Shown here: positions 7,562 to 20,387 of the stretch, in pieces
Layout: each line of letters begins with the position of its first letter
How positions within the stretch are numbered: position 1 is the stretch's first letter
Assembly (NCBI GenBank): GCA_020736575.1
Contig: JAGPYM010000076.1
Location: 27,491 to 91,490, forward strand
Length of the DNA: 64,000 nt
From: Thelonectria olida
Lineage: Eukaryota > Ascomycota > Sordariomycetes > Hypocreales > Nectriaceae
Reading direction: 5' to 3'
Notes under the pieces: model-generated
Told to the model about the DNA's origin: nothing
Database searches by the model: none
The model's input: only the letters and a program-made list of their open reading frames with translations
Program-made: the position numbers and the translations under genes

Positions 7562-8314
7562 TCAAGAAACAACCATGGTGGCAGATCCAGAGCTGTAGTA
7601 GCCTTCAACGGCGAGGATCTGATAATCGTAGGTACCAAGGTTCAGACCGACGTTGCGCCAGGCGTTAAAATGGGCAGATGTGTTGACGGATCCGCTAGAG
7701 CGCTTATTGCGTCGAACAGACCAGAACTGCTGAAAGGTGCGGGTGCCTTCGATCGAGGGAGCATTGACGCGGGTACTGACATAGATATCGTAGACTGATC
7801 CATCAACGGTCACCTCACCCTTCTTAGTGGCGCCGCTCGATGGGTTATAGGTGCCGAAGTTCTCAACGATGTAATACTCGATGAGAGGGTTACGAGTCCA
7901 GCCATAGATGGCCAGGTAGCTGTTCCCGTTGGGCTGGTAGGAACCGGAGTAGTTGATGGTTCTGGAGGGGGTCAAGTCAGCCCAAGGATCAACTCGCATA
8001 TTCCACTATGTCTGCTGAACATACCTTCCGCTTCCGGTGTTCCATCCTTTTCCACCGACATGATTGCCATTTCCGCTCCATCTCATGCTGAACTGACCAC
8101 CATTGCCGTTGGTATAGGTGACACTGCTTGGCGTATCGGTCCAGAAAGAGTAGTAATAGCCACCACTATATCCAGTGGAACTTTCAGTGCGTTTGGCGAG
8201 GCCGTCCTCGATGGCGGTCACGTCTATGCTCTCCCGGGAAGCTGGCTCAGCAGGGGCGGCCAAAACACTGGCAACGGCCGAGATAGCCAAAAGAATGTGC
8301 GAGAATGAGACCAT
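7562..8314 (-). CDS. GH11 endo-1,4-beta-xylanase
   Basis: A secreted family GH11 xylanase that hydrolyses internal beta-1,4 bonds of xylan outside the cell. The start at 8314 gives a signal peptide (MVSFSHILLAISAVASVLAA). Starting further upstream would add a polar extension. A basic pair KR (41-42) suggests a propeptide. Exon 1 ends at 8025. Intron 7962-8024 (GTATGT, branch CTGAC, CAG) joins GSGR to TINYSG exactly as in the family. Catalytic residues are present: nucleophile Glu125 in PLIEYY and acid/base Glu216 in AVEGYYSSG. The length of 229 residues is typical, with no carbohydrate-binding module. It appears intact. Neighbours are a feruloyl esterase on the same strand and GH62/GH10 genes further on, which fits a xylan-degradation role. 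Confidence 0.95.
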
Positions 8315-8424
8315 GATGAAGGAGTTGATGGACAAGTGGTGGGTAGAACTCAAATTCACATCTAAGAAGCGGCTGCTTGACTACTCACTTCTGGGAGCAT
8401 AATGCAAGAGACGAATTCATTAGC

Positions 8425-8432
8425 ATTATATA
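8425..8432 (-). promoter_or_regulatory. Possible TATA box of the GH11 gene
   Basis: TATATAAT on the minus strand lies about 110 bp upstream of the GH11 ATG, a usual distance for inducible fungal hydrolase genes. This is based on motif and spacing only. Confidence 0.35.
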
Positions 8433-10712
8433 TTGTAAAGATCTAGATATGCTTCCGTATTTGCTAATCGTGGATAAAAGGCACCTGGACTCTAGCTGTG
8501 AACCCCGGGAAATCATTCAGGCAGACTTTGCAAAGAACCGTACCATCTTTACTAAGTCATCAGGGCCGGGTAAACTGCCGGGTGATCATGCGGGTCGAAG
8601 CCTCTACTGCATAGTACGACTCTTCAATCGAAACAATGCATTTTCTTCTCAACATAAAGCCTGCCAATCAAATAACTGAGGAATTTTGCATTCCCTGAAT
8701 CCGGCTTGTTCTTATTTAGGCTGTATTCCAACCCCCGTGGGGGATCTACCGATTCGGCAGTGTATAACGGGCCATTCTGCCGAAATCTCCACAGCTGAGG
8801 GGGAAGTTGTTTCAAAATCAGGTGTCCGTATTCCATGACCACTTACGGGCAGGCCAGGGGTCTTGTCGAGGTTCCGAATCACTTGTCCCTTTCTCGGCCA
8901 CAGAAGCGATAGTCTTGCTCGATCTTCTCGCTTCGATCTTTTGTTTTAACCGGAAGTGCCATGACTGTTCCTGTGGAGAATCATCAGTGCCGGAGCCTGC
9001 CCTGTGCTATGGGAATTGTCATCGCAGGAAACCTGAGCCCTCGATCATGCTAGTGCCAAGGTATACCCTTCATCCTGACCTGAAAATGAGAAACCCCAAG
9101 TTCCTAGTTCGCCGCCCAAAGGAATAGTCTTTCCACCCGGAAACCAATCTCAGGGTGCGCGGGGCGTCTCTAGAGGACGTGTCATGCCGCGGAAGGGATT
9201 CACTCAGTAGCTTTCTTTCTCATCAGAAACCCCACGTTGCCGGACTCTCCAGTATTCATGCCGCTTCCATTGGTTTATTGAGGAGCTCGTGTTTCGTCTA
9301 GCCTAAATGCAAGAGCTAGCAAATTCGTTCGGAGCTTTGTTAAGGCTATCTATATCTAGGCAGCATGTTACTCGCAATGACAGAATCCGATTACTAACAG
9401 CCCTACTACGCGTCACCCGTTACTCATCCTATCATAACTTGTACAATATCCGATTACTTGCTCGAGAGAAGGAAATAAGAGTAACTTTAAGGACATCGAT
9501 CAAGGAATGGGAACCAACCCAATACATCACCCGAATCTCGACATTAGTTTTTCCCTTTCTCATGCGTGAGCCGAAGCTTTCGCTGCTTTAGCCGGAGCAC
9601 CATGGGAGCAGTACCGGAGCATGGTGGATGAGTGCGGCGCAGTCAGAGAGGGTAATATGGCTTCCAAATTAGAACAACTCATAAGGATGCGTTTTGCCTC
9701 TCTATAATGCAGTACCTCATCGTGGGGTGTATCAAATACTAATAGGACACAAGAACTGGGAGCCTGTATATCTTAGTAGAGAGTTTAACCACCTCCTCCC
9801 ATTATCTCTTCCAATATCAAGTTGCCCTCGCGAGATAGACCTACCCCCCTTGCTGCTATCCGGAATTCGCGTGAAAAGTATAAGTTTTTATCATGGCGTT
9901 ATCCTAACTATCTGCTATTAGAGTCACCAACACCTGCTTCCGAGCTTGGAGAGCTTTGGTCAAGTCTCAAGGGCTGCCTAAGGCAACCACTGGAGACAAA
10001 TTGCTCATCCAAACCTCTCACTCCTGGAAATTGCGGCATTAACAACAAGGGGCCGTGGGTGTTGTGAATTCAGCCGAAATGTCTTCCCTGGGAAGACTGT
10101 AACATCGAGGCTTGGTGACTAGCCTCACCCATGACGGTGAGGCGGAACGGGGAGCCGAGTACCCATAGAACTCGTAGGAACAGCGGCAAGCAAAGGACCA
10201 ATATGCATTCAAATTAGAAGACTTGAGCAATATAACTAGGAAACCCCCGAACAGTTTGTCTGATGAGTAGCAGGGACAATAGAGAAGTATCACGCTGTGT
10301 AACTTCGCATGGTAGCAGAAGTTCTCAAGATGAAAGGGCCGAAATCGTCAACTCCACATAAGCAACGCTATAGAGCCGCCAGATTTATCGCTCCATGATT
10401 ACAGACACTAGGGTCTCTCATTAAATATCTGTGTTACGAATGACTTACTGGCTACTAAGATTCTCAAAGATGTTCAGCTACATTGTTCAGTCATATATCG
10501 GAAACCATCATGGCTAATCCAGTCAACGCCAAAACAGGCCATGAGTCTGTCATAGGGGTTGATTTTGCGGCTATATGTACCGGCACATATTCAAGCCTTA
10601 ATATATATAACGTGAAGATTAAATTGACAATTTCTCGCTTCCTTCTGAGCTGAGATCCGCTGTGCCAGAGGGAGTTTCCCGCCTCTGTGACTGGGACCAT
10701 CGTGCAAATGCT
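8433..10712. other. Long intergenic stretch, no gene supported
   Basis: Several ORFs of 60-106 codons occur on both strands, but none shows a recognisable motif, signal peptide or linked exons. A TTTAGCC (inverted GGCTAAA, XlnR/Xyr1-type) occurs at about 9587, some 1.27 kb upstream of GH11. It is too distant and too short to rely on. Confidence 0.4.
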
Positions 10713-18809: not shown

Positions 18810-18829
18810 GGCTAAAACGTGCGGCTAAA
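18810..18829 (+). promoter_or_regulatory. Tandem GGCTAAA motifs upstream of GH10
   Basis: GGCTAAA occurs at 18810-18816 and again at 18823-18829, same orientation, 13 bp apart, about 470 bp upstream of the GH10 start. GGCTAAA is the published core site of the fungal xylanase activator XlnR/Xyr1 (a Zn2Cys6 protein). The close direct duplication makes chance less likely. Binding is inferred. Confidence 0.6.
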
Positions 18830-19297
18830 TGCCAAGGGGTCAGCTAGCGGAGACTTTCGCGAGGGATCCAATAAAGCGCAGGGAGCATCATGACCTGTTC
18901 ATCCGCTCGGCTCTTTCGATGGGCATAGCTCGCTCGGCTCATCGGCAATGCTGTGGTGGATCCTTGAAACATAGTCCCTTTCTTCGACCAGGGCTGCATC
19001 AGCTCTAGGTAAAACGCCTCAAAGTCGGGACATATTCTCTCCAATGGCACAATGGCTCTGAAACCGATGGAGGCGTCGGATACGAGAATGGGCTTGGTGA
19101 CCTATTCCTGAGAATTAAAGTACATAGAAACGATATTCAAGTTCGTTGTTATTTAATAGATAGAATCTCCCCATTCTGAAATCCTCGTCTCGTGGCAGGC
19201 ACATAAGCTTCTCCTTCATTCCTAGTCATTCACTACTATCCGTTGCAGGCCACTCATTTGTTTCACCTCTCTCTCTTCTCCAAACGCAAATTTCAAT
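18830..19297. other. Proximal promoter of GH10
   Basis: A minus-strand frame at 18844-19050 is open but unrecognised and may be debris of another gene. The last about 100 bp is pyrimidine-rich (CTCTCTCTTCTCC), usual for a fungal leader. Confidence 0.4.
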
Positions 19298-20387
19298 ATG
19301 AAGTTCTCCGCCTTCGTGTTCGCAGCTTCGCTGGTCGCGGCTGCTCCCACTGTTGAGCCGCGCCAGTCCAGCGACAGCATCAACAAGCTGATCATCAACA
19401 AGGGGAAGAAGTACTACGGCACCATCACGGACCCCAACCAGCTCAACAACCAGCAGAATGTTGCCGTCATTAAGGCCGACTTCGATCAGGTCACCCCTGA
19501 GAACAGCATGAAGTGGGATGCCACTGAGCCCAACCGAGGCCAGTTCAACTTTGCTAGTGCCGATCGGGTTGTTCAGTTTGCCCAGCAGAACGGCCTCAAG
19601 GTCCGAGGACACACTCTCCTCTGGCACTCTCAGCTACCCCAGTGGGTTCAGAACATTCGTGATCGCAACGAGCTTACGCAGGTCATTGAGAACCACGTTA
19701 AGACCGTTGCTGGTCGATACAAGGGCAAGATCTACGCCTGGGTATGGAAACTGGCCTCACTATACGTTAACAGTTTAGAGAACTAATTCGTATCATAGGA
19801 CGTTGTCAACGAGATCTTCGCTGAGGATGGCCGCCTCCGCGACTCCGTCTTCTCCCGAGTTCTCGGCGAGGAGTTCGTCTCCATCGCCTTCAAGGCTGCC
19901 CGCGCTGCCGACCCCAACGCCAAGCTCTACATCAACGACTACAACCTCGACCGCGCCCAGTACGGAAAGGTCTCTAACGGCATGGTCCCCATGGTAAAGA
20001 AGTGGCTCGCTGCTGGTGTCCCCATCGACGGTATTGGGTCCCAGACCCATCTCGATGCTGACGGTGCTAGTGGTGTTCAGGGCGCCCTTCAGGCCCTTGC
20101 CAGCACTGGTGTCTCGGAGGTGGCTATCACTGAGCTCGATATTGCTGGTGCCCCTGCCAATGACTACGTCACTGTCACCCGGGCCTGCCTGAACGTGCCC
20201 AAGTGTGTTGGTATCACCGTCTGGGGTGTTCGTGACTCTGTAAGTAACCATCTGTTTCAACATTTTGTGTTCCCCAAACTAACATCGATCTCAGGACTCG
20301 TGGCGAACTGGCAAGAACCCTCTGCTCTTCGACACCAACTTCCGACCCAAGCCTGCCTACAACGCCATTGTTCAGGCTCTCAAGTAA
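19298..20387 (+). CDS. GH10 endo-1,4-beta-xylanase
   Basis: A secreted family GH10 xylanase that cuts substituted xylan backbones to short oligosaccharides. The signal peptide MKFSAFVFAASLVAAAP is followed by a VEPRQ propeptide-like site. Exons: 19298-19741, 19799-20239 and 20295-20387. Introns of 57 and 55 bp begin GTATGG and GTAAGT and end in TAG and CAG. The spliced protein has 325 residues. Catalytic residues are acid/base Glu153 in VVNEIF and nucleophile Glu260 in ITELDIAG. Other family landmarks are MKWDATEP, RGHTLLWHSQLPQW, GIGSQTHL, TVWGVRDSDSWR and the FRPKPAYNAI end. No carbohydrate-binding module is present. The gene is intact and GC-rich but flanked by inverted RIP-degraded repeats (15.3-18.0 and 20.9-21.9 kb). 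Two upstream GGCTAAA motifs suggest XlnR-type control. Confidence 0.95.

What the first reader, a model, noticed from the sequence alone, without database searches (positions are those of the whole stretch)
7562..20387. Four xylan-degrading genes of different families within 13 kb
GH11 xylanase, CE1 feruloyl esterase, GH62 arabinofuranosidase (broken) and GH10 xylanase cover backbone cleavage, side-chain removal and ferulate release. Fungal hemicellulase genes are mostly scattered, so four complementary functions in one block is unusual. It suggests a catabolic cluster now being eroded by transposons and RIP, or a block acquired together.
Basis: partly seen in the sequence, partly recalled or inferred. 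Interest (0 to 1): 0.75.

Follow-up and report, generated by a model that had tools for sequence, protein, structure and literature searches.

The report
Twice-present fungal xylan-enzyme gene block
A fungus carries three neighbouring genes for stripping and cutting plant xylan as one block that is present at two places in its genome, with a fourth xylan gene next to one copy; this is a new example of a known kind of fungal enzyme-gene cluster.

Summary
GH11, a CE1 feruloyl-esterase-like gene and GH10 are intact, and GH62 is a pseudogene, all within 7562-20387. The genome is Thelonectria olida (Nectriaceae) by a 100% GH10 match on a contig of the same length. Divergence is fairly even and pairwise dN/dS is 0.12-0.20, so the trio was probably copied once, as a unit. 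Two control stretches of 7.0 and 7.5 kb have no comparable duplicate. GH10 lies outside the duplicated segment, but Fusarium nematophilum has relatives of GH62 and GH10 14 locus tags apart on contigs of equal length, so GH10 may be an old neighbour. In trees of GH10, CE1 and GH62 the closest named relatives are Nectriaceae; GH11 was not placed and older transfer is not excluded. No clear XlnR-type motif excess; co-regulation is untested. Fungal CAZyme clusters are known already.

The parts
6912..14415 (.). Segment collinear with C82:11328-18961 (85-88% in the main pieces); holds GH11, CE1 and the GH62 remnant
   Evidence: blastn; alignment; genome DNA search
7562..8314 (-). GH11 endo-xylanase gene, 2 exons (intron 7962-8024), 229 aa, intact
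   Evidence: gene model; PF00457; PDB match 5jrm 363 bits; dN/dS 0.17-0.20 against the C82 copy
10713..11590 (-). CE1-type (FaeC-like) feruloyl esterase gene, 2 exons (intron 11069-11127), 272 aa, intact
   Evidence: PDB feruloyl esterase 8jh8; homologs named feruloyl esterase C; dN/dS 0.12
11591..12714 (.). Divergent intergenic region between CE1 (-) and GH62 (+), about 1.1 kb; no clear excess of XlnR-type motifs
12715..14073 (+). GH62 arabinofuranosidase pseudogene (end approximate, read by eye); an intact copy exists on C82:17572-18609
12808..13152 (+). AT-rich, RIP-like repeat inserted in the GH62 remnant; another copy at C103:235456-235799 (88%)
14259..14422 (.). Truncated arm of a dispersed palindromic repeat at the right end of the duplicated segment; the C82 copy keeps about 230 bases of the arm
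15450..17315 (-). DDE_1/HTH_Tnp_Tc5 transposon with 52-base terminal inverted repeats; 41 other long matches in the genome at 80-100% identity, 16 of them 99-100%; sits in an AT-rich RIP-like repeat that is uninterrupted elsewhere (C77, C151)
   Evidence: counts are lower bounds
19298..20387 (+). GH10 endo-xylanase gene, 3 exons (introns 19742-19798, 20183-20237), 325 aa, intact; outside the duplicated segment

Best explanation
GH11, the CE1-type esterase and GH62 form a physically linked xylan module, and this module was copied once, as a segment of about 7.5 kb, to a second place in the Thelonectria olida genome. The products, expected to be secreted, should cooperate on feruloylated arabinoxylan: GH11 (and the neighbouring GH10) cut the backbone, GH62 removes arabinose and CE1 frees ferulate. 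Both copies stayed functional for most of their history; recently the window copy lost GH62 while the C82 copy kept it. GH10 belongs to a xylanase clade shared by Nectriaceae; it stands next to the window copy, perhaps as an old neighbour that the C82 copy lacks. Shown: the four genes, the second trio, its fairly even divergence, purifying selection between copies, the broken GH62, closest named relatives in Nectriaceae for three genes. Inferred: enzyme activities (by family), secretion, cooperation, age of the linkage, old linkage of GH10, the way of copying. Not shown: co-regulation.
For: The trio on C82 has the same order and orientation. Three intergenic pieces give corrected distances of 0.153-0.156, short flanking pieces 0.12-0.20. 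dS is 0.20-0.21 (GH11), 0.16-0.17 (CE1), 0.21-0.23 (GH62, 332 aligned codons), with pairwise dN/dS 0.12-0.20. With an outgroup, CE1 has 4 residues changed only in C140 and 5 only in C82. The two copies are each other's closest relatives among sequences found: CE1 96% against 92% to Ilyonectria; GH62 302 of 330 residues against 292 and 284 of 330 to the next relative. Window 36000-43000 and 48500-56000 find themselves and no long duplicate. F. nematophilum GH62 (83%) and GH10 (78%) carry tags ACJ41O_015072 and ACJ41O_015086 on contigs of equal length. Trees.
Against: No GH10 was found on C82. No clear XlnR-type motif excess. The genes differ in distribution: this GH10 clade is widespread in Fusarium; for CE1 only one listed cluster (Ilyonectria, 11 members, the rest unnamed) is above 73%; for GH62 only F. 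nematophilum and one unnamed contig are above 73%. In the CE1 tree the next neighbours are not Nectriaceae (Clonostachys, Stachybotrys, Sarocladium, Helicocarpus), and Fusarium CE1 lies apart. A fresh 7.5-kb duplicate should be a RIP target if RIP was active, and no such mark is seen. Pairwise dN/dS cannot tell the copies apart for GH11.
Confidence: 0.7

Rival explanations
1. One of the two blocks entered by hybridisation or introgression from a related species, rather than by duplication inside this lineage; that would explain about 15% neutral divergence without RIP marks.
For: No RIP asymmetry and no strong CpA bias between the copies although RIP-like tracts are nearby; the flanks beyond the block do not match.
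Against: The two copies are closer to each other than to any sequence found. The control stretches have no second copy at this divergence, so there is no sign of a wide second ancestry in this window.
Confidence: 0.17
2. The clustering is incidental: GH11, CE1 and GH62 came together without functional reason and were then duplicated as passive passengers.
For: No clear motif excess. In T. reesei, clustering did not influence expression (PMC5496416, passages).
Against: Complementary functions; random placement gives 2 of 200,000; purifying selection between copies; possible GH62-GH10 linkage in F. nematophilum.
Confidence: 0.25
3. The block was acquired as a whole from outside Nectriaceae, perhaps long ago and perhaps as cargo of a giant mobile element such as a Starship.
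For: 35 DUF3435 (captain-type) exon matches in the genome, some on C82. CE1 neighbours beyond Ilyonectria are not Nectriaceae; the GH62 clade has a long stem.
Against: The closest named relatives of GH10, CE1 and GH62 are Nectriaceae, and GH62 joins T. olida C24 and Dactylonectria (93/89). No DUF3435 match on C140, and none on C82 closer than about 220 kb to the block.
Confidence: 0.07

Closest known systems
[not shown]
   Same: Two xylanase genes and a hemicellulose esterase within one region; region beyond chance.
   Different: Acetyl xylan esterase rather than feruloyl esterase; GH62 is not mentioned in that paper's main text; no second copy of the region in the passages; some clusters there have expression data.
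Loose CAZyme clusters of Trichoderma reesei (PMC4812632 and PMC5496416, passages)
   Same: Small clusters of 3-6 genes; most are cut into compartments by AT-rich blocks that the authors ascribe to RIP, as between GH62 and GH10 here.
   Different: GH10 and GH11 xylanase genes were absent from the chromosome-end and near-end clusters there; clustering did not influence expression.
FaeC-like feruloyl esterases of fungi (names; PDB 8jh8)
   Same: CE1-type esterase at 55-92% identity to the 120 listed homologs, many named feruloyl esterase C.
   Different: The window protein matched no CBM1 model, unlike many relatives.

Membership tests
Fungal CAZyme gene cluster (sense of PMC4469458) | Region that begins and ends with CAZyme genes and is richer in them than chance | tested here: met
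   GH11 to GH10 in 12.8 kb; 2 of 200,000 random placements for the trio, 0 for four. A simpler test than the hypergeometric one used there.
Co-regulated catabolic cluster | Genes expressed together on the substrate | not testable with these tools
   No expression data held
Co-regulated catabolic cluster | Shared binding motifs for the xylan regulator (XlnR/XYR1 type; motifs recalled) | tested here: not met
   GGCTAA 0-2 per stretch, no clear excess over Markov resamples (lowest P 0.08, GH10); GGCWWW P 0.048 in the GH10 promoter only, uncorrected for 20 tests
Co-regulated catabolic cluster | Linkage kept in related genomes | tested here: inconclusive
   GH62 and GH10 14 tags apart in F. nematophilum; no relative's genome could be read here
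Block-wise segmental duplication | Collinear paralogous segment with fairly even neutral divergence and differing flanks | tested here: met
   controls 56, 57
Horizontal acquisition of the block | All genes group with one foreign lineage | tested here: not met
   closest named relatives of GH10, CE1 and GH62 are Nectriaceae; GH11 not tested; older transfer of CE1 not excluded
Starship cargo | DUF3435 captain at the edge of the element that carries the block | tested here: not met
   none on C140, none near the block on C82; the block lies 34 kb from the start of C140 and 11 kb from the start of C82, so the contig ends limit this
GH11, GH10 and GH62 families | Match above the Pfam cut-off | tested here: met
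   GH62 of the window on one open piece only, so a remnant
CE1 family (feruloyl esterase) | Relation to known feruloyl esterases of this type | tested here: met
   8jh8 290 bits; homolog names. PF10503 did not reach it; Pfam gave only broad esterase and hydrolase families. Activity not tested.

The most novel reading that the evidence does not exclude
GH11, CE1, GH62 and GH10 are an ancestral arabinoxylan module of Nectriaceae kept together by selection. In Thelonectria olida it was doubled as a unit and both copies were maintained although RIP should have destroyed one, so the module is under selection for dosage and linkage, with division of labour now starting (GH10 kept with one copy, GH62 with the other).
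Probability: 0.25. Interest if true: 0.5.

Novelty: new member of a known kind. Interest (0 to 1): 0.38.

Why it matters
It gives a natural two-copy system for asking whether clustering of plant-wall enzyme genes matters in fungi. One copy has lost GH62 and has GH10 beside it; the other has an intact GH62 and no GH10 found on its contig. Expression of the two blocks could be compared within one strain. It also asks how a 7.5-kb duplicate with three genes survives without visible RIP where RIP-like tracts lie close by.

Tried and rejected
Foreign origin: not supported for GH10, CE1 and GH62 on the trees; an older transfer of CE1 stays open. Starship cargo: no captain near either block. XlnR-type motif sharing: no clear excess. 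RIP as the cause of GH62 decay: in the core of the block the two kinds of transition are balanced (252 against 249; transition/transversion 1.97), with only a mild CpA excess (over the whole alignment with its unmatched ends 282 against 308). The damage is an inserted repeat plus small lesions. Extra conserved gene between GH11 and CE1: short open frames match between the copies at 42-78% amino-acid identity, below the 86% of the DNA, so no coding signal. Whole second haplotype: not supported by the controls. The first control (window 35000-46400) did not list its own place and is therefore weak; it was repeated with shorter stretches, which list themselves at 100% and otherwise only short matches, the best 401 bases at 73% and 180 bases at 88%. 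PF10503 as a probe for this CE1 missed it and was replaced by the protein itself. GH11 relatives could not be searched: the three database searches went to GH62, CE1 and GH10.

Literature: the listings (9 of 10 shown; 7; 1; 40 of 207 shown; 10 of 18 shown; 5), titles and abstract starts only, named no GH11-CE1-GH62 cluster; two searches found no paper. Six papers were seen in passages. PMC7607812 (T. harzianum) showed no such trio in its passages; PMC11433043 (Nectriaceae) names Thelonectria discophora and holds neither GH62 nor GH10 in its main text. The library lacks most subscription papers.

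Full report
What is there. The window is bases 27491-91490 of contig C140 (91,490 bases in all) of a 52.5-Mb assembly. The GH10 protein is identical to a protein named Thelonectria olida on a contig of 91,490 bases; three further T. olida proteins lie on contigs with the lengths of C24, C84 and C88. Three genes of the finding are intact: GH11 (-, 7562-8314), a CE1-type esterase (-, 10713-11590) and GH10 (+, 19298-20387). GH62 (+, about 12715-14073) is a pseudogene.

Is it chance? The genome has 5 GH11 loci, 4 GH62 loci, 9 GH10 loci (one full of stops) and 3 loci of this CE1 type, counted by me from 8, 5, 17 and 5 exon matches. Random placement of these numbers put a GH11 and a GH62 within 13 kb of a CE1 in 2 of 200,000 trials, and a GH10 as well in none.

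A second block. Contig C82 holds GH11 (-), CE1 (-) and GH62 (+) in the same order, orientation and similar spacing. C82:11328-18961 and window 6912-14415 are collinear; the three main pieces are 85, 87 and 88% identical. The coding sequences of GH11 and CE1 are 92.9 and 95.1% identical, intergenic pieces about 86%, with corrected distances of 0.156, 0.153 and 0.156; the short flanks give 0.12-0.20. dS is 0.20-0.21 for GH11, 0.16-0.17 for CE1 and 0.21-0.23 for GH62; pairwise dN/dS is 0.12-0.20. This is what one copying event followed by long maintenance would leave. A genome search with the whole block gave 23 matches: itself, five pieces of C82, one related GH62 (C24, 69%), the inserted repeat (C103) and 15 places of a dispersed repeat.

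Controls. Window 36000-43000 (6 matches) and 48500-56000 (3 matches) found themselves at 100%; the other matches were short, the longest 401 bases at 73% and 180 bases at 88%. An earlier, longer control (35000-46400, 7 matches, best other 75% over 0.7 kb) did not list its own place and counts little.

The broken GH62. Against the intact C82 copy, the window copy has no start codon at the matching place, an inserted repeat of about 345 bases, a 22-base and two 1-base deletions, and two codons that read as stops. Over 332 alignable codons dN/dS is still 0.17-0.19, and 12 residues are changed only in the window copy against 6 only in the C82 copy, out of 330. So the loss is probably recent. The inserted repeat is AT-rich and RIP-like, and has a copy on C103.

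The edges. The right end of the shared segment lies inside a dispersed palindromic repeat: C82 keeps about 230 bases of an arm, the window copy 164. On the left, C82 has a palindromic repeat with arms of about 158 bases; left of the window block the frames look like reverse transcriptase, but by eye only, and the one piece tested (4377-4802) had no Pfam match. This fits copying by recombination between repeats, but does not prove it.

GH10. It lies beyond the shared segment, behind a transposon with 41 other long matches in the genome and AT-rich tracts. No GH10 was found on C82. Yet in F. nematophilum the closest GH62 (83%) and a close GH10 (78%) carry tags ACJ41O_015072 and ACJ41O_015086, both on a contig of 3,934,432 bases. 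Another assembly of this species has 15,149 genes (PMC11774914, passages), so the tags probably run one per gene, about 14 genes apart. That is inference: the neighbourhood was not read.

Relatives. The trees use 27, 23 and 24 chosen rows of the 120 listed hits for GH62, CE1 and GH10, plus T. olida's own copies. GH10 falls in a Nectriaceae clade with Ilyonectria, F. nematophilum and other Fusarium (99/98). Both CE1 copies join Ilyonectria (100/99); their next neighbours are Clonostachys, Stachybotrys, Sarocladium and Helicocarpus, while Fusarium CE1 lies apart. GH62 joins an unnamed contig and F. nematophilum (100/100) on a long stem, next to T. olida C24 and Dactylonectria (93/89). As a yardstick, one T. 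olida-Ilyonectria GH10 pair (C84) is 85% identical, against 90% for the window GH10 and 92% for CE1. No recent foreign donor is needed; an older one for CE1 is not excluded. GH11 was not placed.

Regulation. XlnR/XYR1-type and CreA-type motifs (recalled) are not clearly enriched in five promoter stretches; the GH10 promoter has two GGCTAA sites (P 0.08) and 8 GGCWWW (P 0.048), uncorrected for 20 tests. Co-regulation is open.

RIP. AT-rich tracts with RIP-like dinucleotide ratios lie around and inside the block, but the two copies show balanced transitions in the core (252 against 249) and only a mild CpA bias. Whether RIP is active in this fungus was not tested. How a 7.5-kb duplicate passed without its marks is unexplained: introgression, asexual spread or weak RIP could do it.

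Noticed in passing
15450-17315: DDE_1/Tc5-type transposon with 52-base terminal inverted repeats; 41 other long genome matches, 16 at 99-100% identity, not AT-rich, sitting in an AT-rich RIP-like repeat. Suggests recent spread.
   Followed up: partly
C82:11328-18961 against window 6912-14415: A 7.5-kb gene-bearing duplicate without RIP marks although RIP-like tracts lie close by; not explained.
   Followed up: partly
35686-50469: Genes with ankyrin, HET, HeLo (prion-inhibition) and protein-kinase domains, the kind seen in fungal self/non-self recognition (recalled).
   Followed up: no
30171-30911: Open frame with a DUF7730 match, next to a frame without Pfam match (29499-30137).
   Followed up: no
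genome: 35 DUF3435 exon matches on many contigs, three covering most of the model with one stop each: captain-type genes of giant mobile elements are frequent in this assembly.
   Followed up: no
52023-52202: A stretch of 180 bases 88% identical to C82:446673-446851, the longest match of that control stretch besides itself.
   Followed up: no
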